Assembly: GCA_003614735.1 (NCBI GenBank) | Contig: KZ992447.1 | Span: 1-59,354, forward strand | Source: Thamnocephalis sphaerospora | Lineage: Eukaryota; Zoopagomycota; Zoopagomycetes; Zoopagales; Sigmoideomycetaceae | Length of the DNA stretch: 59,354 bases | Reading direction: 5' to 3' | Shown here: positions 13,826 to 36,432 of the stretch, one piece after another | How positions within the stretch are numbered: position 1 is the stretch's first letter | How the letters are laid out: each line of letters opens with the position of its first letter | Notes under the pieces: generated by a model | Told to the model about the DNA's origin: nothing | Database searches by the model: none | The model's input: the letters and a program-made list of their open reading frames with translations, nothing else | Made by a program: the position numbers and the translations under genes

Positions 13826-16678
13826 TCGATATTGCCATTGCAGTTTTTTCAAGAGCCGCGGCGATTATTCTCTTTGTTTACAGGGCCGTCGCGGCACTAT
13901 TGCCATCGCTCCTCAGCATACAATCGATACCCGCATGAGTGCACCAAGCGCTGGCAGCTGCTGCTTTCATGCTATTTTCTTGTTGACGAAACTCCTTTTA
14001 TCTTCTTTTTTGCTTCTTGGTTTGAGCTCTGGCTCGCCACGGATACTATCTTGTAACTGCTTTCTTTGTCCATCAGCACCTGCACCAAACGCACCTGCGC
14101 ATCCTTTGCTGCCGGCTATAGCTGTCTTTTATACACAAAATCCCAGCACGCATGTATGCTTTTTCTCTTTCTCTCTCGCACCTTCCATCGTACACTGGTG
14201 CTGTTGCCAATTTTCCCACTGGTCTTGACTCAATGAACTATACCAGTCAATGCTTTCTTGCTCTACAAACGGGTCCATCATGGTGTGCGGCATGTGAGCC
14301 GTGCATGTGTCCATGGCTACGCTTGCGACACGGAAACGATGACGTGTATCGGTCGCGTGCTTTTGTGCCGTCTATCTTGCATGAAAACACTCCTGAACAA
14401 GCACAAGTGGTGTTGCTATTTTCACTCTTGTTGCACCATGTCGCTTGGGCAGTAGCACAGACGACGCGTATCCGGACTCTCGTGCATGCCTCTTGGCATT
14501 TTTACCTGCAGAAAGCGGCCAACGTTGGCTGTCGTCATCTGATCAAGTTGCCCGCCGTTCTTGACTCGGTGCTAAATACACGCAATATCTAATGTTGGTG
14601 TAGTACGGTGTATGTATGTATGTGTATTTGTGTGTGTGTGTGTGTGTATTCTTGGCGCGCATCAATAGTGCACATCCATGTCGCACAGGTCAGACGGATT
14701 GCGTATATTGGTCTATACTCTGATGTGTGTACGCTACAGCTTCTCTGCGTTCTTGGTACACGTTGCGCTGCTGATGCATTATCGCCTACGTCATTTCTGC
14801 GCGCCAGGGCAGTCGCGGCGGCCGCAGTCATGCTTGGCACATTGACCCTTCGCCGAACGCCTGACATCTGCTTTTCAGCCGGTTGGCACATGTCACACAG
14901 CTGGCGCGTGAACGACCTGGCAAACGCACGGCGTACAGTCCCCAAGGCTTCGCCTGTCGCTGCGCCCTTGTGTCCGGACATTATGCCAGCGCCGGATGCA
15001 ATCGTGCGTGTCCTCATCTAACGTACGGCTTGGACAGAGCACATGAAGGCGATTGCAGCCGCTTCATCGCAGGCACAGGGTCGTTCCACCGCGACCGAGG
15101 CCTTGCCACGGCTCCAGCTGATCGTGGCGCTATCAAGACGCATTAATGCGCAAGGTAGCGGCTTTTTGCCTTTGGCAATCTGTGCGATGTGAGCATGACT
15201 ACAATTAGCCATTGTTCCGCTTATCGGTGCTATTTTTGGCAAGCCACCAGCTGTCGTGATCCAAGGCGCTCGGTGGTGCGAAGGATCAGGCATCACAAAA
15301 GCGGTTTCGCTACGAAAAAAAAGTGCGTATTACTGGGCCAGAACCTAGCGCTGCGCGCAGAACCGATAGCTACGCGCCGCCTCGCCGTTGCGAAACGCAC
15401 GTCCGTAGTACACAGCGGTTGGTAAACAGGACCATTGGCTAAAGAACAAAGAACTAGAGCATAGGAGAGGGCGCCACATGCCTGAGCTGATAGGTGGCTG
15501 CAAAATGCGTAACTGGTGCAACCGCGGACGCCGCGGCCTGTCGCAGGTAGACGCGCAAAGATGTTTGCCCGATCGTTGGATCCCGTAGGTGAAGGTGCGC
15601 CGTGCACTTGGCGGTGTGCGGTGTCCTGGGCAGACTCCGCCAACGCTCCAGGCCCGGGTCTAGACTGGCCAGCTTTCCCTTCCCGTGCGCACTGATGCAA
15701 ACGGACGGCCAGCAGGTCGCGCAAAGGTGGCGCCATACCTCACTGCGTAGCATGCGTTCATTGCAAGCGTGGTGTCATTGCTGATGCGGCAGCTGGCAGC
15801 GCCTTGCTGCGTACCCCGCGTGCTCCTACTGCCGCATGTTTCTGCCGGTCTGTTTCGCGTCTTTGTTCCTATGGTTCATTGTCTGTCTCAGGCGGACACG
15901 TGCAAAATGCTCGGGGCCGACGGTTAAGATGCGTACACAGGCAATGCTATACTGATGGCGTGCATTTGGGCCGCTGGCTTGGTGCTGTCGCCGTCACAGG
16001 ATGCCGCACTGGCGCAATTGGAAGGAGAGAGCGAGGCAAGAACGGCATGGCTGGAACCTCATGTCTTGTGTAGCTTTTGCCAGCAAGCCCGTCGAGAGAA
16101 CAAAGAAATAAAACGAAAGATGGAGCATGATAGTATCGACCGAGCCACAAAAGAGGTGGCCTGCACAGCTGCTCGTGACAGGGCTTGCCATTAACAGGTC
16201 GTGCACACCTCTGTTGGGTGACTCAAGCCGGCGGCCACTGGGGGGCTAGCGAGAACCAGACGGATCGAGTTAGAGGACGGCGGTGGCGGTGGCGCAGAGG
16301 CGAGCGCCAGCAGGAGCCACCAAGAGCGGTCGGCTACAAAAACAGCGCGCATTGACCATGCGTCGACAACTTTGCTAGCCACTTCACCAAAAACAGCCTT
16401 CCCTCACGATACCGCGCAGCTTTGCCTACCTGCTTTCTCGCCAGCCAATACTGCCGCTAACGTCTTTACGCAGACCGTAGACTGGCGCGCCCTTCCGCAC
16501 CCCCATTAACGACCTTTTTTTTTGCTAACGATCTACACGTCCCGTATCTGCGCCCTGCGTGGGGGTGTTAATTGCTGTCGCGTACACGTCTCCATTTATC
16601 ACGAGGCACCGCCGCTCCCACCTACCCACCCACCCACCTTTCCGTCTCCGCATCCAGGTTATCCCTTGCGGACCACCC
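13826..16678. other. Gene-poor spacer, 2.9 kb
   Basis: No supported gene. The first 500 bases are T/C-rich and probably the 3' region of the preceding gene; a TG repeat lies near 14611-14648. A frame at 15955-16194 with a charged C-terminal half has no family match or splice partners. The last 300 bases are pyrimidine-rich again (CCCACCCACC...) and probably form the leader of the next gene. Confidence 0.45.
14611..14648. repeat. TATG/TG microsatellite
   Basis: A short TATG run merges into a (TG)n dinucleotide run in non-coding sequence. Confidence 0.85.
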
Positions 16679-18238
16679 ATGGACGCATCTCCGTTTGCCG
16701 AGCCAGTGCGCTACTGCGGCCGCTGCATGCGTGTTCTGCCGCTAGCCTGCTTTGCCAAGGGCAGCACCGTGCGCAAGTCCTGCGGCAGCTGCCGTGAGCG
16801 AAATCGACAGCGGTTTGCCCAACAAAAGGCGGAGCGTAGCGTGGCAGCTAGCGATGTCTCTATTCCACTGGCCAGTCTCGCGGGCTATGTGCGCGAACAG
16901 TTTGCCAAGGCGTCGCGTTCAGCTACCCCAACTGCCTCCGCCACCGGCGCGCGCACGTCCCCAGCCACGTCCGAAATCGACTACACGATGCTGGTCAAAG
17001 TGATGCTTCCGCAGAACATCCCCACCCAAGATGGCACCAGGACGCCACGTGCCGTAGCCGATTTGGTGGCTGAGCGCGTGGGAGATGGTGATGGCTACGT
17101 CTGGCTAGCAGGTGCCTCCTATCTACTCTCGGATCAGCCGGTGTCGCATACTTTTCACTATCGCTGCTCGTTGCGCACAGACCCAGCCAAGCGCCGCTGC
17201 AGCAGTCTGGGCCTACCCACCGATGGCTGCCCGGACACGCCAAATGCCAGCGACGGCGGTTGGCAGTTTCTCGACTGCTACAACTGCACTGGCCTGGTAA
17301 AGATCTCGGTGGCCGCCAACTTTTCCTATGTGGTGGTCTCCGCAGAGCACCGGCTGCTGCATCGACGCCCCGCTGAAATTGTCCAGCCCGAGCGCATTGC
17401 ACTCCTCGGCAAGCGGTCCGCCAGCGTGGCTCTGCCCACCAGCGAGAGCGCCCAGAAGCGTCGATTCGGCAGCGACAGCAGGAGCGATAGCACAGCAAGT
17501 CCCGAGCTGCTGTCGGACACCACATTGGCTTCTTCCTCACCGGCCGGCAGCCTACCTTATGCGCTACCGCTATCCTTTGCGCCGTTGTCGTCGTCGTCGT
17601 CGTTGTCACCGTCGCCGCCACCACCGCCATCGCTACAGTTTCCCACTGTCAGCACAACGCCACTGCAGTCGTTCTATCTCAGTCTGCAGACGCCCATCTC
17701 GCCCACTGCTTCGACACCGACGATGCTCGGCGGCGCTGGCGCCGTGGAATTTCCGCTGTCCCCCAGTCTATCGCTCAACAGTCCACTTGGTACGCCTGAT
17801 GTTGTTCAGCAGCCTTCGCCCACCAACGAATGTGCTGCCGTCACAGCCGCCACCTGGCAGCAGCTGATGGCAAGCTTCACACCTTCCATGCCTGCTCTGT
17901 CGCCCACGGCGCCCATGTCGACGGTGGCCACACCCACAGCCATCACCGGTCTTCCTGCCACATCCGTTTCGCCTGCTTTTCCATTTCCGTTGATGTCGTC
18001 CAACACGACGAGTCCGGTGCCGGGCTATGCCGCAGCTAAAGCGCAGACTTTGTCTACGTCAATCAACACGGCCGACGTGAACGCCACTCTGGCCGTCATG
18101 CTGGCTACCGGCATGATGAAGGAGACGGCCACGCCGGCCCTGGCTCCGTCGCTGGACAGCTACGAGCTGCTACGTCAACTAGCATGCACACCAAACACAC
18201 TGGGTCTCGGCGGTATTGCGCCTGCAGCGTACAGGTAG
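16679..18238 (+). CDS. Unrecognised protein with two Cys-rich zinc-like modules
   Basis: A single exon of 519 residues from the ATG at 16679 (upstream in-frame sequence lacks an ATG). Module 1 is C13-x2-C16-x18-C35-x2-C38, followed by a basic helix (RERNRQRF), like a treble-clef or zinc-ribbon cofactor binder. Module 2 spans about residues 155-230: FHYRC163, a basic Cys-containing loop, GWQFLDC200YNC203 GLVKI and then SAEHRLLH, with H224 and H228. That order (Cys, Cys, beta strands, H-x3-H) recalls the FLYWCH/FAR1/WRKY-GCM1 class of DNA-binding zinc folds found in transposases and derived regulators. The remaining 290 residues are Ser/Pro/Thr-rich. I infer a nuclear DNA-binding protein; the family assignment is tentative and no enzyme motif is seen. 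Confidence 0.65.
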   Translation: MDASPFAEPVRYCGRCMRVLPLACFAKGSTVRKSCGSCRERNRQRFAQQKAERSVAASDVSIPLASLAGYVREQFAKASRSATPTASATGARTSPATSEIDYTMLVKVMLPQNIPTQDGTRTPRAVADLVAERVGDGDGYVWLAGASYLLSDQPVSHTFHYRCSLRTDPAKRRCSSLGLPTDGCPDTPNASDGGWQFLDCYNCTGLVKISVAANFSYVVVSAEHRLLHRRPAEIVQPERIALLGKRSASVALPTSESAQKRRFGSDSRSDSTASPELLSDTTLASSSPAGSLPYALPLSFAPLSSSSSLSPSPPPPPSLQFPTVSTTPLQSFYLSLQTPISPTASTPTMLGGAGAVEFPLSPSLSLNSPLGTPDVVQQPSPTNECAAVTAATWQQLMASFTPSMPALSPTAPMSTVATPTAITGLPATSVSPAFPFPLMSSNTTSPVPGYAAAKAQTLSTSINTADVNATLAVMLATGMMKETATPALAPSLDSYELLRQLACTPNTLGLGGIAPAAYR

Positions 18239-20877: not shown

Positions 20878-22418
20878 TTACGCCGATGGCGTGTCCGCTG
20901 TCGGAGTTGCATCCGTGCCAGTGGCCTCTGCGGCGCGTTCGGTACTTGGCCACCAACGCGGTATCCACGGCCGCGCCAGCCAGCTACCCTGCGACGATGC
21001 TACGCGAAACACGCGGCCTTCCTGAACATGCTCCAGACGCACCAAGGCCAACGCTGCATTGGCACCAGGCGCGACCGAGCACAGTTTGGCTGGAGCACGG
21101 CGAGGCCGCGCACTACTTCCGGCAGATGGTGCTGCATCAGCAAACTGCATATCCGTACCCGGCACAGGCAGGTCCGAGCACGCTGCAAACGGCGTAGACC
21201 AGGGCTGTGCCGGTGTTCCCACGGCTTCGGCCGACTCGGGCAGCAGCTGCACAGGCACCAGCCGCTTGCGCACCACGCCCGTATGGTAGGTGCGAATCGT
21301 TAGTTCCTGGCCAATGTAGCATCCCTTGCGAAAGTCCACTGCATGTTTGCAATCGTGTCACAGCGCGTTAGCCATTAGGCGCATTACACCGCTGCGACAG
21401 CATAGCTACTTGCCACCGCCCATATAGTCCAGGTTGCATTCCAGCGGCAGTGACTGTTCAGGCACAAAATCGTGCTCGCCCTCAGCGACGCCCTTGAGGA
21501 TGCGCAGCGTAGTGTAGTCGTCGGCAGAGAGTTCCGTAAACGACGCAGGCAAATTCACTGCGCACAGAAAAAAGTAGGTGAGCACGCCAGTCGTCGCTGC
21601 TCTACGCCGCATGGACATCCATCCCGGCGCGTTTCCACGTACAGCACTCCTCCTCTCGCGTTACAGCGCGGAACGCAGAGCCGCCAGCCCGTGTGTCGGC
21701 CATGCCAATGTCGGCAAATCCGACCCCATCTCGCTTTACCAGCTTGCCCTGCGGCAGACGCGCAGCAGCAGTCGCGTTGATTTGATGTCGCCACCACAGC
21801 TGCTCTGTACCGGCGCCCCAGATGGACCAGACACGGTAGGCATCCGTGGGCTGTACATCGATCTTGGCACGCAGCCGGTACTTGCGCAGATGCATGAGCA
21901 GCATCTTTTGCGCACTGGCCGGACAGTCCAGCAGAAAGGCCGGGCGCGGAAACGACTGGCCTTCGTTGCGCGGATAGACGAAAACGTCCGCCATAGCACG
22001 GCCCTACGCGTCGCCACATGGTCAGCGTCGGTGCAACAGCATTGTACACGGTATGCTGCGTCCAGCCGCTCACCTGTGGCGTCAGAAAGGCAGCCCAGAA
22101 TCCCTCTCCGCCGCTGGAGATTCGCGGCATGTGGTTCGTAATGAGGCCTTGCAGAAAGTTGGCCGCGTCTGCGCCAGCCAATTCGATGAGCGCGCGGTCT
22201 GGCACGGGCGCATAGTGGTCTCCCAGCAAACGCGTAGGCAGCGACGGTACGTTCGGAGCCAGCACGCTTTGGTCTGCCGTTGAGTTTGCGCCTGCCGGTC
22301 GTGCCGACGATTGCGGCAGGCTAGACCGTTCTGCGCTAGTGCTGAGGAAGCGCAATGCCGCACTCTGGCGGGCGATGCTGCCTGGCTGCAGCGTACGCGC
22401 AAGTCGACCGGCGAGCAT
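20878..22418 (-). CDS. IBA57: IBA57-type Fe-S assembly protein, mitochondrial
   Basis: Exons 22418..22074, 22003..21643, 21557..21414 and 21338..20878 give 436 residues. IBA57 is a GcvT/YgfZ-fold protein that works with ISCA proteins in mitochondrial [4Fe-4S] maturation. Seen: a mitochondrial presequence ([20 protein letters not shown]), [58 protein letters not shown] with LPLECNLD, the family signature [26 protein letters not shown], and a final FR.A ... WWPS. The intron 21339..21413 must be GC-AG (G/GCAAGT) to join [10 protein letters not shown]; no GT donor gives the right frame. The insertion between [11 protein letters not shown] and [12 protein letters not shown] is Pro/Ala-rich and longer than I expect. 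Only 173 bp separate it from the divergent helicase A start. Confidence 0.93.
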
Positions 22419-22591: not shown

Positions 22592-25500
22592 ATGCAACGC
22601 TTCATCACGCACGCTAGCACCGCTTCTACGCTTCGTACGGCCACGCATTGGCAGCGCCCTGCAGCGGTGCTCGTGCGGCAGAGTATGTCGCTGCGATCAA
22701 CCATATCGCATGGCGTTCAACATGCGCATGCCTGGCACTTTGGCGTCGTGGCTTGGCCGCGCTACTTGCCAACCACCAGGCGCCTGTTGCATCACCACTC
22801 ACTGCTACAGGATGCCAGCACTGCTGTCTCTCTAAAAATCAGCAAAGACAGTACTGTTGACCCTGCAAACGACACCGGCAACGGCAAGCAAGATGGCGAA
22901 GATATTGTCGAAGAGGATATTATCAAAGACCCAAAATATACTTACACCTACCCTACTGTAAAGGCCTACGTGAAAAAGTACGTGCGCTATGGTTTCGAGT
23001 GCGCCGCAAACCATCCGTACGCGCCAGTACATACCGCTTATATCGTGTGCACATAGGTTTAGCAAGCTTATCGAGATGGAGCGAGAAGAGGAGCGACGCA
23101 CTGCGGAAAAGCAGCTGCACAAAATTCCTTTGAGCCGACTAATCAAGCACGGCCTAGTACTACAGCAAATGAAGGGTCAAAGGTTTGGCGAACATTTTGA
23201 TAGATTCAAACTGTCGTTTCAGACGGAAGAAGGCAAAAAACTGCCGCATTGCACGTTTGCGCAAGGCGATGCAGTGGTACTTAGCCGCGATGGCCCTTTG
23301 GGGGAGGACACACACGAAGCTGTAGTGTTCAATCGGACGAAAAAGAGAATAGTTTTGACGGTAAGAGATTTGCCACCCGAGTTGGATTCTGGCGTTTGGC
23401 GTCTGGATCAGGGTAGTTCTGCTGTGTCCTATGAAAGGTAAGCAAGTAAGATGACGCCAAGTATGGTGCAATCTGCTAATGTATATACAATGATACGACG
23501 CAACATGTAGAATGAAGGATACACTTGTGCGAATTCATGAGTCTACACTCAAAAAGATAAAGAACCAGTCAAACACATTGCTTCGAGATGTTCTTGTTGG
23601 CCAGCAATCAAAGAAGCAAGCAGGTAAGCGCCATGCTAATGGCAAGTAATGCATTCGTGACACTCACCCGCACATGTAGAGAAGCCGTCGCCGTTGCTTT
23701 CCGCATATCCTAAAGTGCGCCAATGGATAGACAATGAAGTTGAGCTACCAGGCGTTCCTACCAATGATAGGCCCAATACGTCACAGCTGGATGCCATCAA
23801 GCATGCACTGACCCACCGCTTCACAATCATTCGAGGCGTAAGTGCCAATCGATGAGGCACCAGAATTGTAGCCGATGGAATGTCTAACACACATCATAGC
23901 CACCGGGTACAGGAAAAACGATGGTGCGCCGTAAACAGTCCAGGCCAGCGCCAGCGCTACCGCCATGTTGCTGACTCCCAGCTGCCTATGTGATAGACTA
24001 CCGTGCATTTGGCTCGCATCATACACCAGCTTACGGAAAAAAGACTTCGAATCCTGGTCTGTGCCTGCACCAACGGCTCTGCAGACAACTGTAAGTGAAG
24101 CGATTGCATCTGTACGCAACTTTGCTCACTTTTCAGCGCACGACAGTGCTTAAGCGTCTGGCAGATCAAGGCCTAGACACTGTACGGATTGGAATGCCTA
24201 CACGAGTTTGTGCAGATTTACGCAACCAAACACTAGATGCACGCGTGGAAGCGCATAAAAGGTATCCAGAGTTGCGTAAGCTACGTAGTAAGATTGCCGA
24301 TTTGGATCAGAAAATGTACGACACACAAATCAAACATCGCGTTGACGGTAAGCAAGCTTTATCTAGTTTCGCTACTCGAGCGCTTAAACATAGCATGCGG
24401 GTCTGCTAGAAAACAAACTTCAGGAACTACGTCGCAATGCTGAAATACTACGCAGAGATATTGTAAATCAGATTCTTGATGATGCTGATGTTATATGCGG
24501 CACCTGTATTAGTGTCGGCTCGGATGAATTGAAAGTGAGCCAACCTAGCCGAGTAAATGCTGTCACCAACTTGACTGACGTTTGCCGACTAGCACATGTC
24601 CTTTCCACTGGTTATCATCGATGAGGGCTCTCAGTCCACGGAGCCGCAGTGCTTGGTGCCTTTGGCAAAGGGTGCTGAACACGCCATTATAGTTGGCGAT
24701 CACAAACAGCTACCGCCGTTTGTTCTCCATCAGGACGCCCGGGACGAAGGCCTTGGCCTCAGTCTTTTAGAGCGAATGCTTCATGCGGGTGAGTAATAGC
24801 CACCTCGGATTGATGCTGTTCGCCGTTGATGCGTGCATTTTGTAGAGGTGCCCAGCGCAGACTTGCGTATACAGCACCGAATGCATCCTGCTATCTGCGC
24901 CTTTCCAAGCATGCATTTTTACCAGAATCGCTTGATGAGCAGTAGCGCTGTGGCCGAACATCAAGCACCAAAGCTGTTTCGGACTAGCCCTGAAGGAGCG
25001 AAACAAGCCAAACCACACCCATCGCTGGTGTTTATTGACTTGGAGTCAGGCGGCGAAAGGCGCGTCAACAAGTCTCGCATTAACCATGGCGAAATCAAGG
25101 CACTGTCTAGAGTGCTGCGCCTACTCAAGCAGCAGAATCCAGAGCTGCGTGCTCAAGACATTGGCATCATAACGCCTTATCAAGGGCAGTACCGAAAACT
25201 GCTTAGCGCAATTGAATCGTCGCCCTTTGCCAAAGATACAAAAGCAGAAGGTAAAAAGCAGAAAGATGACGAGGAAGATTCGGTGCCGGACGCGCGGCTA
25301 TTGCCCGAGGTAAAGACCATCGACGGCTTCCAAGGCTGCGAAAAGAACGTGATACTGTTCAGCACGGTGCGTGCCAACAGCAAGGGCACCATTGGCTTTC
25401 TGAAAGAGCAGCGCCGGATGAATGTGGCCTTGACACGCGCTCGCAACCTACTAGTGGTGTTTGGCCGCGCCAAAACGCTAAGCAGAGATGAAAACTGGAA

Positions 25501-25618
25501 CAAGTGGATATGCTGGCTACGCAGCGGCGAGGGAGGATCGGCTGTCCAGCATGTTACAACCGCCGGACTTCGTAGCCATCTGCAGCGATTTGGTATTATC
25601 AAGCCCAAGAGCCGTTAA
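22592..25618 (+). CDS. IGHMBP2/Hcs1-type SF1 helicase, copy A
   Basis: Ten exons (22592..22977, 23057..23437, 23511..23623, 23680..23837, 23900..23923, 23997..24090, 24147..24347, 24410..24534, 24593..24788, 24846..25618) give 816 residues. Upf1-like 5'-3' helicases of this branch unwind RNA or DNA; yeast Hcs1 and human IGHMBP2 are relatives. The N-terminus (MQRFITHASTASTLRTATHW...) is Arg/Ser/His-rich without acids for about 70 residues, a mitochondrial-type presequence. Then come the 1B/stalk region and the motifs GPPGTGKT (I), ACTNGSADNL (Ia, degenerate), DEGSQ (II), GDHKQLPP (III), QHRMHPAI (IV region), TPYQGQ, DGFQGCEKNV (V; Cys replaces the usual Arg/Lys) and NVALTRAR (VI). The P-loop lies in a 24-nt exon. 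It is first in a head-to-tail trio with 372 bp to copy B. Confidence 0.9.
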
Positions 25619-25989
25619 ACCGCGTGTCGCTTATCTTCAGCCGCCATTGACCTTGTTTGTGTGACGGTGCATGGGCCATGATTGGTGATGTGACCCTCAA
25701 TAAACGCGGTGATGCGAACAATGGCAGTCGGTCGACGCAAACACCCTTTGCCACAAGTCGACATCAGCCACACGTGTTGTATCTGGCAGGGTAAAGGCGT
25801 CGGAAGGAAAAGTGCTGTTTGATAGGCGTGCTACCAAACGGTCAGAATGAAGCACAGATTGGCGAACGAGTGTAATGAATTGGACAGTAGTGCTTTCCGC
25901 CGCCTGATGCTCGTCGAGATCAAGCAACGCGGTTGGCAGCTGGCCGCCACTCTGGCGCGGCGCTTCCCTTTGTTACTCTTTCATTCAGC

Positions 25990-28900
25990 ATGAAGCGCCT
26001 CATTACACATTCCAGTGCTGTCTCTGCGCCCTGCGTGCCCACATACCAACGACATGCTGCGGCGGCGTTTGTACGGCAGAGCATACTGTCGCGGTCGGCC
26101 ATATCGTTCCACGCTCGATATATACCCACTTTATCCTCGGTTACAGTAACTTGGTCGGGCTGTCAGCCGGATACAAGGCGCCTTTTCCATTGCTGCATAC
26201 CACGGTAGGATGCTGGTACCGCGCTCACTAATAAGAGCGACAGCAGATAGGACTAATGCTGCCTTTACACTAGTAGTGCTAGCGTGCAAAAGAGCCGGTG
26301 TCTTGAAGGAGAGCATATGCGCAAAGGTCTAGGCTACACCTATGCGTATCCGACCGCAAGCGCTTACGTGGAAAAGTATGTTTGCTAGCATGGGGACGCC
26401 ATCAGCTTCGATTAGTGTTTGGCGCATGTATGCTGACGCTGGGGTTGGCAGGTTTAGCGCGCTTATTGAGCTAGAGGAAAAGGAGGAACGTCGCATTGTC
26501 AACGAGCGGCTAAACACATGGCCAATGAAGCGTTTAGCGGATGCCGGCTTGCTGCTACAGCACATGAAGGCCCGAAACTCTGGCAAGTATCTTGGCATGT
26601 CCAAGCTGGAATTTTACCTGGAGCAAAACAAGGAACTGCCGCGTCACACATTTATGCAGGGCGACATGGTGATGATTAGCCGCAAGCATCCGCTAAAGGG
26701 AACAGCCTACGAGGCGGTGGTGCTCGGTCGAACGCGCAGCAAGCTTGTTCTGATGTCGAATAATGTACCGGACGACTTATCCCACGGTCTATGGCGTCTA
26801 GACCGAGGTAATTCCACTATTGCATACGAAAGGTGTGTGGCCGGTCTGCGCGCCAAAGCATGCCCGACTTACCGAGCGGTGTGGTGCGGTGTAATGCGGT
26901 CTAAAGGATGAAACGCGCGCTTGATCTGCTGCACAAGCCAACCAGCACGTTTGATGGCAGTAACATTGCGGGCGATACCAGCACGGATTATAGCAAGAGT
27001 AACAAAGCAATAGGCACCCAGCTCTACGACGTTCTTGTTGGCGATCAGCCAGGAAAGCAAGCAGGTATGGCGCCACATTAGCCACGAGTAGACACCGCTC
27101 ACACGCTATTACACAGCAAAACCGTCACCGCTATTCTCCATGTATCCGTCGGTGCGCAGATGGCTGGATGGCAAACTTGTATTAGATAATGCTCCGGCTG
27201 AAAGGGAGCTGAATCCATCGCAGCTGGCAGCCATTAGACAAGCGTTTCTGCATCGCTTTTCGGTGATTCATGGCGTGAGTAGCAAAACGTAGCAGGTCAT
27301 AGCGCGCAAGGCGGTAGCTGATGGGTGTATTAGCCACCGGGTACAGGAAAAACAATGGTACGCTGTAGAAACCGAAGCTCGTAGCAATGTGTTTGCTTTA
27401 CTCACGGCGGCTAACATGTCTGCCTGTGCTGTAGACGGTTGCAAGCTTCGCCCGACTCGCGCGCCGATTCGTCGGTAACGCATTCCCTATTCTCGTGTGT
27501 GCCTACACCAATACCGCTGCAGACCACTGTATGTACTGCTCTTTTGCACGCATCCGACGTAGCTTACACTGCGTGCGGAGCAGTGCTTGATAGCCTGTTG
27601 GAGCAGGGCCTGGATGCGGTCCGAATAGGCATACCCGCACGCACTCGCACCAATTTGCAGCGCTTCACACTGGATGCGCGTGTGGAAGCACATCCAGACT
27701 ATCCCAAGCTACAGAAATTGTACAAGAAAATTGAAACGCTGGAGCATGGACTAGAGTTGCTGGATGGCTGGGACCGAGGCATATGTAAGTGCCGACTGCT
27801 TGTATCATCTGCGACTATGCAGCCAACCGACAGCGCCTTTAGGCTTTCAGGCCATCGTTAAAGGGCGGGAGGAAGCCAAAGGACTCCATCAACGCATTCG
27901 AACAAGCATCATAGAAGAGGCTGACGTTCTATGCACCACTTGTATCGGCGCCGGTTCAGAGGACCTGAGGGTGCGCTGTTGCGGTTGTCGAGCAAATACT
28001 TCCGCAAGCTAGACTGACGGCCTTTTCCTTGTAGAGCGTGTCCCTTCCGCTGGTCATCATTGACGAAGGCTCTCAGTGCACCGAACCACAGTGTCTGGTG
28101 CCCCTGACCAAGGGTGCCAAGCACGCTGTCATTATTGGCGACCACAAGCAGCTGCCGCCGCTCATACTGGATGCCGAGGCACAAAAGGGCGGTCTTGGCC
28201 TAAGTCTCCTGGAGAGAATGACCTATGCGGGTAGGAAGTACCACATTGCGCTGGAGATGTTTACGGCTAATGCCGCGTTTGCACAGGCGCGCCTAGCACG
28301 ATGCTCAACACGCAATACCGGATGCACCCGGCCATCTGCGCGTTTCCCAGCACGTACTTTTACCTGGGCCAGCTGGCCAACGGCGATGCCACGGCTGAGC
28401 AGCAGGCACCGCGGCTGCTCCTCTCTGGCTCGCAGGACACAACAAACGCGCTATCCTGCCCATCACTGATATTTATTGACTTGGAGACCGGCATAGAACA
28501 CCGCGGTACTGGCATGTCATTAGCAAATGCTGAAGAAGTGCAGGCAACCATTGGCGTACTGCGCTTACTGCAATACCATAACCCACAGCTGCTTGCGCGA
28601 GATGTAGGCATCATCACGCCCTACCAGGAGCAGCACCGGTACCTGCAGAGCGCCATCAGATTGGCGCCATTCACGAGCGGCCGCGACCTTGTCTGCCAAG
28701 ACCACAGCAGCGAAAATAAGGAGGTTGATGCGCTGGTGCTACCCGAGGTGCAGACCATTGACGGTTTCCAGGGCCGCGAAAAGAACGTGATCCTGTTTAG
28801 CGCCGTACGCGCCAATCGTGGCGGCATGGTCGGCTTTCTGGGCGATCAGCGCCGGATGAATGTGGCCCTAACACGCGCTCGTCATCTGCTCGTGGTGATT

Positions 28901-29077
28901 GGTCATGGCAACACGCTCAGTGCTGACCGACACTGGCGCGAATGGATGTGCTGGTTACGCAGTGGCGAAGCAGGGCCTGCTGCCCAGTACATTGCCGCTT
29001 CCGAGTACCAGAAGCAGCTACAGTGCTTGAGTGTACACGGGCTTTGCCACCGCCAAGCAGGCGGCTATTCTTTCTAG
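25990..29077 (+). CDS. IGHMBP2/Hcs1-type SF1 helicase, copy B
   Basis: Eleven exons (25990..26204, 26274..26375, 26452..26832, 26907..27064, 27117..27274, 27334..27357, 27435..27528, 27584..27784, 27843..27970, 28035..28230, 28287..29077) give 815 residues. It is a paralogue of copy A: five internal exons have exactly the same lengths (381, 24, 94, 201, 196 nt), and the extra exon comes from an intron in the presequence region. The N-terminus (MKRLITHSSAVSAP...) resembles that of A and looks mitochondrial. Motifs: GPPGTGKT, AYTNTAADHL (Ia, degenerate), DEGSQ, GDHKQLPP, QYRMHPAI, TPYQEQ, DGFQGREKNV, NVALTRAR. All ATPase motifs other than Ia look intact, so I expect an active enzyme. The start codon is the first ATG of the frame; the paralogue A start aligns with it. 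Confidence 0.9.
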
Positions 29078-29269
29078 TAAACCGCCGCCTGTTCATGTGC
29101 GCCAGTGCACACGTCACTTCTTTCCTTCGTCTGTGCGGCCCAACCAACGCGTGCTCTTGCCGCCACCCACTCGTCCTCCCCGTAAAGCACTGTGGCGGCG
29201 CAGATCGAAACGGTTGCTGGCCATTCTCACCTTACAAACCTACCCTTATCCTCTTCTATCAAAGACGCC

Positions 29270-32200
29270 ATGAGTCGCCACGATGGACGTGGCCGTGGCC
29301 GTGGCCGTGGGCGCGGACGTGGACGTGGACGTGAGCAAGCTTCATATGACGGCTGGGGCTCAGACTTGCGAGCAGCACCAGAGGAAGCCACGTGCGATTT
29401 TGACCTTGGCAGCAATCCCTGGGACACACCAAGCAATCCGCAAGCGGAGAACAACGATGACGATGGCGGCTGGGGTAACGTAACAGCCAGCATGAAGAAG
29501 GCGTGGGGAGAGCCTGCATCGCCACCAAAGTCCTGGGACGCTGCTGTGGACAACTCGCATACAGAGAGCGAAACTCTTTGTGACCAAGACTCTTACAAAG
29601 ATAGCCACGATTTAGACCGACGCAGCAACTATAGCGGGAACAGCGGCTGGCGCGGCGGTTCGTACGGCAATGGCAACGGTCCAGACCCTGCGCAATTCGA
29701 GCAGCGCACCCGCGGCAGCAAAGGCGGGCGTGGTGGCAATCGAGGTGGGCGCTTCAACAACATGGACGACCAGAGGAGCAGCATGCAACCGTCATCGCCA
29801 CTACATGGCGAGAGTACAAGGAGTCGAGGCTCCTCCAACAATGAACGCCATAACCAAGGATCCTATGGCTCGCAACAAGGCCGCAACCCGTACCGTTCCG
29901 TAGATCGTCATAGCAACGAGTCGTACGACCATGCGGCTGGTCAAAGAAACGGGTCTAGGTATGGCAAGCCAAGTGACGTTGAATACAACTGGAACAATGC
30001 AGCAGGCAACAGCGGGCCGACCGCTGGCAACATCATTGTCCAGGAGCCCGAGGAGGATGATCGTCCAGACAGGGGAAATTTCAGCCGATCGCGTCAGTCC
30101 GATTATGATCGTCGCAGCCACGAATCTCGCAGCCACGAATCTCGCAGCCAGCGGGATCAAAGTGTGTACAGTCATTCTGATAGCCAGGAAAGTCACGAGC
30201 AGAGCAGCACGGAATGGGATGCCCGGAATCGGGCTCCCGCTGACAGAGGGCACCAGTCAGGGCGCAGCGCACCGCAACAGCAGGTGCACGACAGCTGGCA
30301 AAACCCGCAAGATGGTAGTCCCTCGGGAAGAGCAAACTACGGGAGTAATACCCAAGAGAGGTATGGACAACAGGAGTGGCAGCATCAAGATCAATACGGC
30401 CAGGCAGGGCACAGTGCTCAGGGCCGCGAATCAGCTCGCCCAGAATACAATGAGCGGTCGGCTTCAACATGGGATAGACGGGAGGAGCACACCAATGCGC
30501 CAATCGCCAACCGCCAGGGAGCCGCTGAGCAAGATGTAGCGCAGTCGCCCATTACACCGAGTGCTGTAGCAGACTACGTTTACCAGTAGGTTGCGCGGGT
30601 TACAATCACGCGGCTAAATGGAATGCATCGAAAAGATGCGTTCATGGTATGTTTGCATGTGCTAACGCTTCTATAACGACAGTTTCCTCAAGATGATCAA
30701 CTTTGAACTTACGGAGGAAGAAGACAACCTGCATGATCGTATCAATGAATGGCCGCTTGAGCGTTTGGTGGGTGAGGGTGCCGTGCTGCTGGATATGGCT
30801 GGCGATATGACAGATCCCTACTACAGCATGTTCCAGTATATCTTTAAGCCCGAAAATGGAGGTCGCATGCCTTATTGCACCTTTTCGGAAGGCGACATGC
30901 TCTTCCTCAGTCGTCGGCATCCCATCTGGGGCAATGTCTACGAAATGACAGTGCTGGAAAAGACACCTTCACAGATCGTAGTCATCTCGCGTGCCATACC
31001 CGAAGAACTACGCGAGGGGGTTTGGCGACTGGATCAGGCCACAACAACAACGCCGTTTCTTCGGTAGGTTACGTGTGAACGGAACAAGAGAAGGGCTCGT
31101 TAGCTGGCTACTCTTGCCGTAGCAGTGATGGTTGGCACGGATTAGTTTAGCACTGTGTCTAACGGTATACTGCGGACGATAGAATGGAGCGTGCACTGCT
31201 CTCTCTTTGCCAGACAGGAGAAGGGGATAAAGCGATGGTGTCGGAAATGAAACGCATCAAGGCCAGTAGGTTTGGCAGCGATAAAGACGACGACAATTAT
31301 CACGAGGGGGATGATGACGACGATGACGAAGAGAATGATGACGACAACGCGGAGAACGATAATCCCGACTTTGTGGGCACAGTGTTGCGCGATGTAATCC
31401 TATCGACCGATCCAAGAAAGACAGCATGTAGGTTGGTCAGGTGCACGGCTTGCTGATCTATTTATACTAAGCCTTGTGCGTGTACCTGGGATCTGCCTAG
31501 TTCTGCCGTCCGGATTGTTTGACGAGTATCCCGACTTGATTGACTGGCTGAAAGGCTCTGCCGATGAGACGGCGGTTCTGGGGAAACAGGAGCGCGGCCT
31601 AAATCGATCGCAGCTGATAGCCGTAAAGCAGGCGCTCTTGCATCGCTTTTCTCTCATTCTTGGTGTGAGTCAAAGGGGAGCACGCATGGCACGGCATATT
31701 ACCAAGTCAAAATGTCTAACAGCACCTCTGATCAATAGCCACCGGGTACCGGCAAAACCACCGTATGTATCTACCACAGTATGGTGCTTCTCTGCTGCAC
31801 TAACAGGCACCGCGTTATTCCAACAGACCACAATTCAAATGGTGCGAGTTGTACTCGAGCTCACGCAACGCAACATTCCCATTCTACTCTGCGCCAAAAC
31901 CAACGTGGCCGTGGACAATTGTGCGTGGCCGCGGTGGGCACATGGCTGATACTACTGTGACTTACGTGTCTACATTGCGCCCATTTGCAGTACTGAGTGG
32001 ACTGATTGATGCAGGTGTAAAGGCTCTACGAATTGGCATGACGGCTCGCGTGCGCGAGGATTTGCGCGAGTACACGCTGGACCACAAGATTGAGAATCAT
32101 CCCAAAATAGATCAGCTAAAGAAATCCAGAGAGAAGATAGGCGCCCTAAAAAGGCAAAGTCAGCGTGGGCGCGGACGCGGACGCGGTCGTGGTCGTGGCA

Positions 32201-33548
32201 GGGGCAGAGGCAATGATGGCCCTTCCAGGAGTTGCGAGGTTGGTGAAGGTATGTAGGGCATCGTCGCACACACAAGCACTCATGGGCTGACAGACTCGGA
32301 CGCCACCTGCGTGTTTGCACAGCCGGAGAAATAGCGGCCAAGCAAAAGGAGGCTCGTGATTTGATGGACGCCATCATCCAGGATGAAATCAGCGGTGCCG
32401 ATGTGATTTGCGCCACAAGCATTGGTGCCGGATCACCCCATCTGAAGGTGCGCAAAGACGTAGCAGACAGATTGCGTTCATTGTTGACGCGTAGTACGAC
32501 AGAGGTTCGCCTTTCCGCTGGTCATCATCGATGAAGGCACTCAGTGCACAGAGCCAGAATGTCTGATTCCGCTTGCCAAGGGCGCAAAGCACGCTATTAT
32601 CGTGGGCGACCATCGACAGCTGCAGCCCACCATCATGAGTCGCGATGCCAAGTTATCTGGACTAAGTACCAGCATGTTTGAGCGGCTGATGCACTTTGGT
32701 GAGTGTTGCGCGCGATCCTGTAATATAGGTGGTCGTCTTACTCAACGCTGGCGACTGTACCAGGTATACCGAGCACGATGCTGGACATACAATATCGCAT
32801 GCATCCCACCATTAGCGACATTTCGAGTCGCATGTTTTACGAAGGCCGTATCAAGAACGGCATTAAGGCAGAGCAGCGCCCGGTGCCGTATCTAGCTAAA
32901 CTAGAGCGCGAGCTGCAGCAACATGACACGGTCAATCCGCCGCTTATTCTAATCGATCTGCAAGATAGTATCGAGCGACGCAGTGCAAGTGGCTCCGTGC
33001 GCAACGAAGAGGAAGTGGGGGTGGTGCTGGAGCTGTTGGACGACTTGTTTGCGAGTAACCGGGATCTCAAGCCGTGCAATATCGGTATAATCACACCATA
33101 TGCAGAGCAGCGCCGCATGCTACGTGATCGCACCCAGGATAACGACCAGTTCCAAGTGGAGATTGATGGCATCATCCAATATTCCAACTATGGCGACGGC
33201 GACGATGATAGCGGCGAAGTCGACCGTGAAAAGATGCTGGAGGTGCACACCGTCGACGGCTTCCAGGGTCGAGAAAAGGACGTGATCATTATGAGTACGG
33301 TACGCACCAATGTAAGCGGCAGCAGCATTGGCTTCCTCTCCGACTGGCGGCGGCTGAATGTGGCAGCAACGCGTGCACGCCGGCTACTCGTCTTTGTCGG
33401 CAACCTCGACACGCTGAAACAGGATGACCACTGGTGGCAGCTTATCAACTCGGCCAAAGAAAGTCTGGATGCTGCCATCGTCTCAGCGCAAGCATATCTG
33501 CCCCAGGGATACAAGCCAACCTTTTCGGGCACCCGCCATTACTACTAG
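29270..33548 (+). CDS. IGHMBP2/Hcs1-type SF1 helicase, copy C, with RG-rich N-terminus
   Basis: Ten exons (29270..30585, 30683..31063, 31183..31427, 31501..31664, 31739..31762, 31827..31920, 31991..32248, 32323..32447, 32503..32698, 32764..33548) give 1195 residues. The first 438 residues are low-complexity: an (RG)n start after MSRHDG, scattered WG/RGG motifs, then Ser/Arg/Gln/His-rich repeats. This composition is typical of RNA-granule and RNA-binding proteins. The helicase body follows with GPPGTGKT, AKTNVAVDNL (canonical Ia), DEGTQ, GDHRQLQP (usually QLPP), QYRMHPTI, TPYAEQ, DGFQGREKDV and NVAATRAR. It differs from A and B by an acidic insertion in the third exon (Asp/Glu/Asn run) and an RG run (about 32162-32208) in the exon just after motif Ia. 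It lacks a mitochondrial presequence. It is convergent with U2AF35, 215 bp away. Confidence 0.9.
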
Positions 33549-33763: not shown

Positions 33764-34732
33764 TCACCGCCGGTCATCACCGCGACGCGGCGACCGAGAG
33801 CGTGAACGCGACCGGTGTCGCCGGCTCTCGCGCCCATGGCGATCACGCTCGCGCTCGCGCTCACGTTCGCGGTCCCGGTCCCGATCGCGGTCGCGATCAC
33901 GATTGCGCTCCCGATCCCGGTCACGGTCTCGATCCTCGCGGTCGCCACGATCGCGCGAGCTGCGTCGACCGCTCTTCTCACGCAAGCTCAGTCGCTGTGC
34001 ATCTTCCAGCTCGCGCTTCAAAGCGCGCGTCGGATGCCGTAGATGCATAAAGTTGCAGAAGCCGCCACGATCGCACTCGCCGTTTTCATACTGCCGACAG
34101 CACGCCTCTGCAAAGTCCGTCACTGGTGAAAGCTCCACAAACAGCGGACGTCCTACGCAGTAGATGACGACCATCGCGCAACGTTAATCCACGGATCGAC
34201 CTTCACTCGTCAGCACTGTTACCCTACTCACCTGCGTAGAAGCGCTTGTTCAGCTCGTCCTTGGCACGCTGCGCATCCTCCTCGAGGGAAAAGCGCACGT
34301 ACACATTGCCAACCAGATGGTCGGCGACGTTGTTGCACACACGGATGTCCTCCACCTGGCCGTACTTGCAGAATTCCATGTAGATATCCTCAAAGAACAG
34401 GTCGAAATGCGCCTGCAGCTGCTCCTTGTCCAGCTTACACTCGGGATCCAGTTCGGGATTCTGGTAAAAGTTGGCAATCATAATTGTCTGCGAAAAGTTG
34501 GGCTTCACATGCTTGCGCGAACAACGCTCGCCATGGCGGCACGCGCCAATCTTGAAGTAGAAGGAACAGTTGACCCTGTACACAGCGATGACCGTACAGA
34601 CAACGAAAGCAGCGCCCGAGCATCAGCCACCAAATCGTCGAGAACGCGCCGATCGCGTCCAGCCACTACCACCACTACCACCACCTACTTGTCCTTCTCC
34701 GTGCCATAGATCGAAGCGAGATGCTCAGCCAT
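33764..34732 (-). CDS. U2AF1: Splicing factor U2AF small subunit (U2AF35)
   Basis: Exons 34732..34689, 34575..34232 and 34152..33764 give 258 residues. U2AF35 recognises the 3' splice-site AG as part of the U2AF heterodimer. The short first exon encodes MAEHLASIYGTEKDK, nearly the same as other U2AF35 proteins. Then come zinc finger 1 (CSFYFKIGACRHGERCSRKH), the U2AF-homology RRM (RVCNNVADHLVGNVYVRF, AGRPLFVELSPVTDF) and zinc finger 2 (CCRQYENGECDRGGFCNFMH). The C-terminus is a long Arg-Asp/Arg-Glu/Arg-Ser tail (about 70 residues) instead of a Gly-rich RS tail. The gene is complete. It lies 168 bp downstream of CET1 on the same strand. Confidence 0.97.
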
Positions 34733-34900: not shown

Positions 34901-36432
34901 TCACGGAAGACGCGCCAGCACGCGCGCATTATCAAGAAAAACGCGCACTAGTTCAGCAAACGAGTTGCGCTCCTTGCGCAGATGCCGTCCATGCTCACGC
35001 TTGAGCGCAGCCACATCCCACAGCTCCAATTCCAGCTCATGCGTCGTGTTGGCAACATCCTAACGATGCATGTAAGCGTACAACGATAAAGGCAGCATTC
35101 CTGACAGCAGACACCACCACCCACCTGGCTGGTGACCAGCGTAAGGTCTACCTTGCAGTGCTGGTGCTTGTAGGTGGCGCGGTTCTTTTTGCGCTCATGT
35201 GTCCATTGACTGCTCGGCATCGACGCTAGCGCACCATTCATGTCATGAGCCTACCAAACGATGGCACAGCACGGATGTACCTTACTCACCAGGCTCTTCC
35301 GTATTGATGGATATTCGAAAATCAAACGGACACATGGGCAAATGCATGTTCAAGTCAGCCAGGCGCTCCTTCCACATAATGCCGCCGGGCACTATGTTGT
35401 TGCCATCCCAGTCAAAGGTTACGCGTGTCCGTACGCCGTCCTCCTGGTAGAAGCGATCACGCTCGAGCACCCGCTTAAAACCAACGCGGTGGCCCTGAAC
35501 AAACGGCGTTAGGCCAGCGCCTCCACGTGTGTCGCCCAACAACGCATGTCGCCTACCTTGTGATTCGGCTTTTGCGTCTCTTCGACGCGCTTGTTTAGCC
35601 GCTCGTTGATGCGCTTGTGCCATTCCTGCCACGGTCACCGGATGCACGTCAGCGTCCGCGTTAGACTGTCCCGACTATGTGTGCCAACTTACAGCAGGCA
35701 TATTCGACTCGAAGCGCATCCATGAGGCGTCGCTGGGAGAGATGACTGGCAACCAGCGCCGCGCATGAGTGCGCGTATGCTACTGCCACTACGCCATCCT
35801 ATTGCCTCTCACCGGTTTCCGAGACGACCGGCAAGCGTATCCGCTGTCCCGTCTGCTTATCCAACAGTAGACCAAACTTTGCCTCAATCTAATCCATCGC
35901 GCATTGTCCATCTGACATTAGCTTTCAGGGTTAGCGGCCCCTGCCCACCACGTGTGCCCACCTCTAGGTTTGACTGGTTGATATAGCGCAGAATGAGGTC
36001 GGTAACGATGCGCAACGCGTCGTCTACGTTGCAGTTGCCAAACAGCGTGGGCTCCAGGCCGCTGGCAGCCGAGAACGCTGTGATGCTATGTGTAAGGGCA
36101 TGCGACTGCATCTGAACAGCGCCTAGCGTGGGCACTGACGCCTGGCTCGCACTCAGTGGAGGGAAGGAAGAAGCTGGCGGCGCTGCACCGCCTGCCCCAG
36201 GCGCGGCCGACAGCGGAGCAAGCGTGGGCACGACGCTGCCTTGCGCGGCGGCCACCACAGTCGCGCCGTTGGTCCGGTTGCCCTCATCACTCTCGCCATT
36301 ATCGTCGGAATCGGTGCGTACGCGTTTACGCGGATTCTCCTTGAGATCAGCCTGCTCGGCCACCGCGGTCACTTTGGCAGCGACCGGCGGTACCGCCAGC
36401 GCCGACTGTGTCGAGGGCGGTAAATCAGCCAT
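34901..36432 (-). CDS. CET1: mRNA-capping enzyme subunit beta (polynucleotide 5'-triphosphatase)
   Basis: Seven exons (36432..35962, 35888..35813, 35745..35693, 35625..35557, 35494..35290, 35225..35125, 35059..34901) give 377 residues. The enzyme removes the gamma phosphate from nascent mRNA before guanylylation, in the fungal metal-dependent tunnel class. Motif A is NLEIEAKFG, restored only after splicing; MRFESNMPAEWHKRINERL follows. The tunnel strands are RTRVTFDW ... MCPFDFRISINTE and RKKNRATYKHQHCKVDLTLV, and motif C is THELELELWD. The first 130 residues are Ala/Pro-rich and disordered, with a basic patch (PRKRVRTD) that could be a nuclear signal. The start is the ATG at 36432; a longer frame upstream opens only with GTG. 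It sits between DUS3 (107 bp upstream) and U2AF35. Confidence 0.93.

What the first reader, a model, noticed from the sequence alone, without database searches (positions are those of the whole stretch)
22592..33548. Tandem trio of Hcs1/IGHMBP2-type helicases that diverged by N-terminal replacement
Three head-to-tail paralogues share exon skeleton and motifs. Copies A and B begin with related, acid-free, Arg/Ser/His-rich presequences typical of mitochondrial import. Copy C has none and instead starts with a 438-residue RG/RGG low-complexity region. Most fungi I know of keep a single Hcs1-like gene. A duplicated, compartment-split set of SF1 helicases, one of them granule-like, may be an undescribed division of labour in nucleic-acid maintenance.
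Basis: partly seen in the sequence, partly recalled or inferred. Interest (0 to 1): 0.8.

Follow-up and report, generated by a model that had tools for sequence, protein, structure and literature searches.

The report
Tandem trio of fungal UPF1-like helicases
Three neighbouring helicase genes in a small fungal genome arose by duplication of a little-known helicase family related to UPF1; two copies may be mitochondrial and one has instead an arginine-glycine-containing tail, so they are not the Hcs1 genes they were first taken for.

Summary
In detail: three head-to-tail spliced SF1 helicase genes at 22592-25618 (A), 25990-29077 (B) and 29270-33548 (C), sharing nine introns; A and B share an acid-free N-terminus that C lacks. 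The label Hcs1/IGHMBP2-type does not hold. The genome has a separate Hcs1/IGHMBP2 gene on contig C328 that groups with human IGHMBP2 (100/99), and trio+Hcs1 as one clade is rejected (AU p = 9e-70). The trio is one clade (100/99), sister to basidiomycete proteins (99/96; 96/95 on a reduced set), although archaeal proteins are nearer by score and path length. The basidiomycete proteins are probably the uncharacterised "putative basidiomycete-specific" UPF1-like helicase (UMAG_10130) of a 2025 Ustilago maydis survey. This host's UPF1 groups with Syncephalis (Zoopagales), so the family is not confined to basidiomycetes. Deeper branching is unresolved. Inferred: A and B are mitochondrial; C lost that signal and gained an RG-containing tail and an internal RG run. 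A has two substitutions at otherwise conserved motif positions. Transcripts, localisation and substrates are untested.

The parts
22592..25618 (+). Gene A, 10 exons, 816 aa: presequence-like N-terminus (residues 1-73 acid-free), linker, helix + 1B exon, RecA1/1C, RecA2
   Evidence: Hand-spliced model with a single open frame; AAA_11 and AAA_12; PDB best matches NAM7/UPF1. Motif IV QHRMHP and motif V QGCEK depart from consensus
22592..22810 (+). Acid-free N-terminus of A (residues 1-73)
25990..29077 (+). Gene B, 11 exons, 815 aa: N-terminus homologous to A's, one extra intron (26205-26273, or to 26282 with the other acceptor)
   Evidence: AAA_11 and AAA_12
25990..26169 (+). Acid-free N-terminus of B (residues 1-60)
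29270..33548 (+). Gene C, 10 exons, 1195 aa: long low-complexity N-terminal tail, then the same helicase core
   Evidence: AAA_11 and AAA_12 in the core; no Pfam match in residues 1-448; PDB best match UPF1
29270..30585 (+). Exon 1 of C: S/G/R/D/Q/N-rich tail, 14 RG in residues 1-426, with a GRGRGRGRGRGRGRGR run at residues 6-21; tandem hexanucleotide at 29284-29333
31991..32248 (+). Exon 7 of C: carries a second (RG)8 run, residues 800-815, in a linker region (exon 57 nt longer than in A and B)
23057..23437 (+). Exon coding the 1B region of A (381 nt in all three copies)
   Evidence: weak PF21138 match, below cut-off
26452..26832 (+). Exon coding the 1B region of B (381 nt)
   Evidence: the three genome places listed as matching it are all in the trio
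30683..31063 (+). Exon coding the 1B region of C (381 nt)
20878..22418 (-). Neighbour, bounds approximate: probable IBA57/CAF17-like gene, transcribed away from A; start codons 173 bp apart
   Evidence: CAF17 C-terminal barrel PF25455 in 20881-21357; the upstream piece 21744-22418 had no Pfam match. The name IBA57 is recalled. Context only

Best explanation
The trio is a local expansion of a fungal family of UPF1-like SF1B helicases that is neither Hcs1/IGHMBP2 nor UPF1 itself. Supported by the tree and gene structure: one ancestral gene with nine introns was duplicated twice in tandem; C split off first and A and B separated later; the sister group in the best tree is basidiomycete. Inferred: the ancestor was a mitochondrial enzyme; A and B are imported into mitochondria and, like the family's solved relatives, move 5' to 3' along single-stranded nucleic acid using ATP, most likely remodelling mitochondrial RNA or RNP. 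C lost the presequence and gained an RG-containing tail plus an internal RG run, which should keep it in the cytosol or nucleus and add RNA grip to a core whose own grip loop is not UPF1-like. A, with two altered conserved motif positions, may be a slower or regulatory copy.
Against: By score and by path length in both trees archaeal rows are nearer to the trio than the basidiomycete rows, so the sister grouping rests on topology alone. In the reduced tree a 59/10 branch puts the fungal clade on the IGHMBP2/Hcs1 side. No TargetP/MitoFates run was possible. The hydrophobic moment does not discriminate: A 0.53, B 0.31, but archaeal P0001 0.50 and P0065 0.64, C 0.30. B has an internal acid-free run of 59 residues, nearly as long as its N-terminal 60. 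Only 2-3 of the 12 fungal relatives examined have an obvious presequence (P0247, P0254, perhaps P0253); several models look truncated. A just passes the NCBIfam IGHMBP2 cut-off (358.0 against 348.9), as does archaeal P0065 (426.6); C (346.5) and B (331.9) do not. A's match to SMUBP-2 in the PDB is longer (residues 123-677) though lower-scoring than that to UPF1. No transcript, protein or activity data; RNA as substrate is assumed.
Confidence: 0.5

Rival explanations
1. The trio are Hcs1/IGHMBP2 orthologues.
For: A reaches NCBIfam TIGR00376 just over its cut-off; weak PF21138 match in A; IGHMBP2-like grip loop in A and B.
Against: Separate Hcs1/IGHMBP2 gene at C328 scoring 565 bits on TIGR00376 against 332-358 for the trio and over the PF21138 cut-off; AU test rejects; motif II is DEG(S/T)Q(S/C)TEP rather than DE(A/C)AQALEA.
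Confidence: 0.03
2. A gene acquired from a marine Poseidoniales-type archaeon, later duplicated and given introns.
For: The 120 listed matches to B are 35-39% identical over 90-96% of the region, 437 bits at best; the 9 of 120 that carry an organism name are all archaeal. Archaeal rows are nearest to the trio by path. Fungal + archaeal as one clade is not rejected (p = 0.136).
Against: The best tree does not join them; trio + archaeal without basidiomycetes p = 0.037. Branching among fungal, archaeal and UPF1 clades is weak (59/10), and fungal+UPF1 is not rejected either (p = 0.111). With an archaeal query the ten best prokaryotic loci are 50-70% identical and the next about 36%, and the fungal rows are also 33-36%, so no special closeness is shown. 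If basidiomycetes share the family, any transfer is old.
Confidence: 0.15
3. All three act in the same compartment; the N-termini of A and B are merely basic low-complexity sequence and the three copies are dosage or divergence duplicates.
For: No localisation data; the hydrophobic moment is uninformative and B has an internal acid-free run of similar length.
Against: Conserved acid-free N-termini in two copies that are otherwise 47% identical; clean absence in C.
Confidence: 0.27
4. One or more copies are decaying pseudogenes or gene-model artefacts.
For: A has QHRMHP and QGCEK at conserved sites; models are hand-made.
Against: Three full-length frames with consensus splice sites, shared phases and excess third-position change.
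Confidence: 0.05

Closest known systems
Uncharacterised 'putative basidiomycete-specific' UPF1-like helicase family (UMAG_10130 of Ustilago maydis; PMC12511879, passages seen)
   Same: SF1 UPF1-like, separate from Upf1, Hcs1 and Sen1, present in Cryptococcus and other basidiomycetes; the trio is sister to basidiomycete proteins found here
   Different: One U. maydis gene in that survey, in a clade with three other basidiomycetes only; here three tandem copies in a genome whose UPF1 groups with Syncephalis. UMAG_10130's own sequence was not seen, so the match is inferred from the described distribution
Hcs1 / IGHMBP2 (SMUBP-2)
   Same: SF1B fold with 1B and 1C insertions (in the sister P0248 model), N-terminal helix, IGHMBP2-like grip loop in A and B
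   Different: Different clade; the genome has its own Hcs1/IGHMBP2 gene; no R3H or AN1 domain listed
UPF1 / NAM7
   Same: First in PDB sequence searches of all three copies
   Different: No CH zinc domain listed; own UPF1 is elsewhere (C135) and in a separate 100/100 clade; a sister relation is not excluded
Poseidoniales-type archaeal helicases, about 671 aa (some annotated 'regulator of nonsense transcripts 1')
   Same: Alignable over 90-96% of B's core including the N-terminal helix and 1B region
   Different: No long RG tail or acid-free presequence in the six sequences viewed; relation unresolved

Membership tests
Hcs1/IGHMBP2 | Phylogenetic grouping with known IGHMBP2/Hcs1 | tested here: not met
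   the known reference in the tree is human IGHMBP2 only, yeast Hcs1 was not included
Hcs1/IGHMBP2 | SMUBP-2_HCS1_1B domain (PF21138) at cut-off | tested here: not met
   A 19.7 and 22.7 bits against cut-off 27; B and C not listed; own C328 gene 36.3 bits
Hcs1/IGHMBP2 | NCBIfam TIGR00376 at cut-off (348.9) | tested here: inconclusive
   A 358.0 over; C core 346.5 and B 331.9 under
Hcs1/IGHMBP2 | R3H / AN1 zinc-finger C-terminus (animal IGHMBP2; recalled) | tested here: not met
   None among Pfam matches; Hcs1 itself lacks it (recalled), so not decisive
UPF1 | CH zinc-binding domain PF09416 | tested here: not met
   Not among Pfam matches of A, B, the C core or C residues 1-448; listed UPF1 relatives carry it
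UPF1 | Falls within the UPF1 clade | tested here: not met
   UPF1 is its own 100/100 clade; fungal+UPF1 as sisters is not rejected, p = 0.111
UPF1-like SF1B helicases | AAA_11 + AAA_12 with motifs I, II, III, V, VI | tested here: met
   departures: A has R to C in motif V and Y to H in motif IV, C has LQP for LPP in motif III
UPF1-like SF1B helicases | 1B and 1C insertions in RecA1 | tested here: inconclusive
   Seen in the model of the sister P0248; the spliced window proteins were not folded
UPF1-like SF1B helicases | 5' to 3' ATP-dependent unwinding | not testable with these tools
   needs biochemistry
UMAG_10130-type fungal family | Clade with basidiomycete members outside Upf1/Hcs1 | tested here: met
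   99/96 and 96/95; sister group, not nested; UMAG_10130 itself and Sen1 not in the tree
Mitochondrial matrix proteins | Cleavable presequence | tested here: inconclusive
   Acid-free, basic, homologous N-termini in A and B; no predictor available

The most novel reading that the evidence does not exclude
Fungi possess a third, undescribed organellar branch of UPF1-like helicases acting on mitochondrial RNA, and in this Zoopagales-related fungus it has split by compartment: two mitochondrial copies (one possibly regulatory) and one relocated to nuclear or cytosolic RNPs by exchanging its presequence for RG arrays.
Probability: 0.33. Interest if true: 0.65.

Novelty: new variant of a known kind. 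Interest (0 to 1): 0.45.

Why it matters
It extends a helicase family that the 2025 survey PMC12511879 called putatively basidiomycete-specific to a genome whose UPF1 groups with Zoopagales. It supplies a natural set in which N-terminus, RG tail and motif residues vary on one core, so localisation and grip can be tested by swapping N-termini. It also offers a different hypothesis for UMAG_10130-type proteins (mitochondrial) from the NMD-like role suggested in print.

Tried and rejected
UPF1 R843C idea: A's motif V Cys looked like the known UPF1 R843C mutant (PMC5789848, passages, which pairs it with yeast R779C). Counting along NAM7 in the alignment puts R779 11 residues downstream (VRAN), which is intact in A; dropped.

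Replacement of standard mitochondrial helicases: a SUV3_C match over its cut-off and PIF1-domain matches on three contigs exist, so nothing suggests that the trio stands in for them; whether those genes serve mitochondria was not tested.

Neighbourhood: 8 flanking ORF pieces were scanned; no mobile-element family was listed among them. Not a systematic search.

Literature: the listings showed no description of this trio; UMAG_10130 occurs in one held paper. Passages of PMC5031192 and PMC6784888 were seen and not used.

rRNA identification of the host was not obtained (search unanswered six times). The AAA_12 search listed no Sen1 or Dna2 that I recognised; they were not sought separately.

Full report
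WHAT IS THERE. The window is contig C24 of a 14.46 Mb genome in 594 contigs. Three spliced genes read on the + strand: A 22592-25618 (816 aa), B 25990-29077 (815 aa), C 29270-33548 (1195 aa), separated by 371 and 192 bp. Each model is one open frame with GT..AG introns of 52-119 bp. Splice sites were chosen by hand with the homology of the copies in view. Nine introns are shared in order and phase, eight of them in identical alignment columns, and four internal exons have identical lengths in all three copies. B has one extra intron whose acceptor is uncertain (26274 or 26283 as exon start). Third codon positions differ most between copies. A genome search with B's 1B exon lists only these three places.

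N-TERMINI. A and B begin with acid-free stretches of 73 and 60 residues. With the acid content of the rest of each protein the chance is 8e-5 and 2e-3. Two controls weaken this: B has an internal acid-free run of 59 residues (317-375), and the hydrophobic moment does not separate A (0.53) and B (0.31) from archaeal relatives (0.50, 0.64) or C (0.30). The A and B N-termini are homologous (z = 16.6; 0 of 1000 shuffles as good), while C's matches neither. C's exon 1 (438 residues) is S/G/R/D/Q/N-rich, has an eight-fold GR run at residues 6-21 and 14 RG and 3 RGG in residues 1-426; no Pfam family matches residues 1-448. A second eight-fold RG run sits at residues 800-815. Mitochondrial import is therefore suggested, not shown; no predictor was available. 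The gene divergent from A is probably CAF17/IBA57-like, mitochondrial by recalled function, which is weak context.

NOT HCS1. Pfam gives AAA_11 and AAA_12; the SMUBP-2_HCS1_1B model is matched only by A and below its cut-off. In the whole genome that model is over its cut-off once, on C328. The gene there, joined from exons, has motif II DEAAQALEAECW, like human DECAQALEASCW. On NCBIfam TIGR00376 (cut-off 348.9) this gene scores 565, a Methanococci protein 920, archaeal P0065 427, A 358.0, C core 346.5, B 331.9, two UPF1 proteins 264 and 322, and four basidiomycete relatives 310-339: the trio stands at the edge of that model. PDB sequence searches rank UPF1/NAM7 first for all three: B 228 against 174 bits for SMUBP-2, C 255 against 170, A 223 against 199, where the SMUBP-2 match is the longer one.

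PHYLOGENY. I put 66 rows in a tree: the trio, own Hcs1 and human IGHMBP2, own UPF1 and ten others, ten named basidiomycete rows plus the unnamed P0250, sixteen archaeal-type rows (two of them named as archaea), two algal, two unassigned and nineteen prokaryotic IGHMBP2-family rows (one of which, P0273, fell with the algae). One basidiomycete hit (P0255) was left out because its C-terminus looked mis-modelled. The trio is one clade (100/99) with A+B inside it (100/99), and joins the basidiomycete rows at 99/96. After dropping six long or odd rows, with stricter columns, the values are 100/99 and 96/95 (60 rows). Against this, the rows nearest to the trio by path length are archaeal, not basidiomycete, in both trees, and archaeal rows top the profile search. 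Own Hcs1 and human IGHMBP2 join at 100/99 inside a 100/100 clade with prokaryotic IGHMBP2-family rows. AU tests reject trio+Hcs1 (delta lnL 98.5, p = 9e-70) and fungal clade+Hcs1 (p = 6e-8); fungal+archaeal (p = 0.136) and fungal+UPF1 (p = 0.111) are not rejected; trio+archaeal without the basidiomycetes is marginal (p = 0.037; named after the tree was seen). The order among the deep clades is unresolved: in the reduced tree a 59/10 branch puts the fungal clade on the IGHMBP2/Hcs1 side.

RELATIVES. A protein search with B listed 120 of 2541 matches; 9 of the 120 carry an organism name, all archaeal (Thalassarchaeaceae, Poseidoniales, Euryarchaeota, Thermoplasmatota, Methanobacteriota). A profile search with all three copies listed 120 of 1159, including eleven named basidiomycetes (Armillaria, Cryptococcus, Wallemia, Mycena, a Tremellales, Calocera, Chiua, Sphaerobolus, Candolleomyces, Serendipita, Agrocybe; that these are basidiomycetes is recalled), Aureoumbra and one EukProt entry taken as algal from its N-terminus. 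The database holds Mucoromycota, chytrid and Syncephalis proteins, but in those 120 the only chytrid entries carry UPF1 domains and no Mucoromycota or Syncephalis protein is named; both searches scored only about 8000 candidates. The host's UPF1 groups with that of Syncephalis fuscata (71% over 98%; 100/100), a Zoopagales species. rRNA identification was not obtained.

HOW IT MAY WORK. Motifs I, II, III and VI are recognisable in all three copies (C has LQP for LPP in motif III). A loop that sets nucleic-acid grip is AKSR in yeast UPF1 and HPAR in IGHMBP2, and mutating it lowers UPF1 grip and processivity (PMC6138625, passages). A has MPTR, B IPAR and C MTAR, so weaker grip than UPF1 is predicted, most clearly for A and B. 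In the same paper IGHMBP2 needs its C-terminal domain for unwinding. By analogy C's RG tail may supply grip outside mitochondria. A has His for Tyr in QYRMHP and Cys for Arg in QGREK; that both lie at the ATP site is recalled. Of 353 proteins, 349 matched the motif V pattern and 344 of those have Arg; 339 matched the looser motif IV pattern, 288 with Tyr and none with His. A could be slow or regulatory. Beyond the motifs this paragraph is inference.

WHAT IS KNOWN. A 2025 survey of Ustilago maydis RNA helicases (PMC12511879; passages) finds UMAG_10130 in a clade with S. reilianum, U. hordei and C. neoformans only, calls it putatively basidiomycete-specific, and suggests an NMD-like role from STRING. 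I take the basidiomycete rows here to be that family, though UMAG_10130's sequence was not seen. If so, the family also occurs outside Basidiomycota, and a mitochondrial role is an alternative worth testing. Only 2-3 of 12 fungal relatives show a clear presequence at their annotated start, so this is not settled.

VERDICT. A real and well-described array, mis-assigned to Hcs1. It is a new variant of a known but uncharacterised family, with moderate interest because the three N-termini make localisation and grip directly testable.

Noticed in passing
G000:C328 about 15436-17783 (L009 about 3437-5784): Hcs1/IGHMBP2 gene of the same genome, with about four short introns in my hand model, near the contig end
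   Followed up: yes
window 24865-25400 (gene A): Two departures from otherwise conserved helicase motifs in A only: QHRMHP and QGCEK; the second codon differs from B's by one base, so a sequencing error is possible
   Followed up: partly
window 20878-22418 (-), bounds approximate: Probable CAF17/IBA57-like gene with its own presequence-like start, divergent from A across 173 bp
   Followed up: partly
window 33764-34622 (-): Two neighbouring ORFs with CCCH zinc fingers and an RRM, U2AF35-like by recall, with a long RD/RE repeat over imperfect 6-18 bp tandem repeats
   Followed up: no
window 35282-35674 (-): Match to the mRNA capping triphosphatase beta chain (PF02940), near the U2AF35-like gene
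   Followed up: no
fungal relatives P0245, P0247, P0251, P0252, P0254, P0269: A shared DWR-containing stretch, roughly DWRxxAxSR in most, upstream of the core in 6 of 12 fungal relatives; DWR does not occur in A or B and in C only within the helicase core
   Followed up: no
P0260 and P0276 (algal relatives): Both begin with hydrophobic signal-like and then basic, acid-poor sequence, which might be plastid targeting
   Followed up: no
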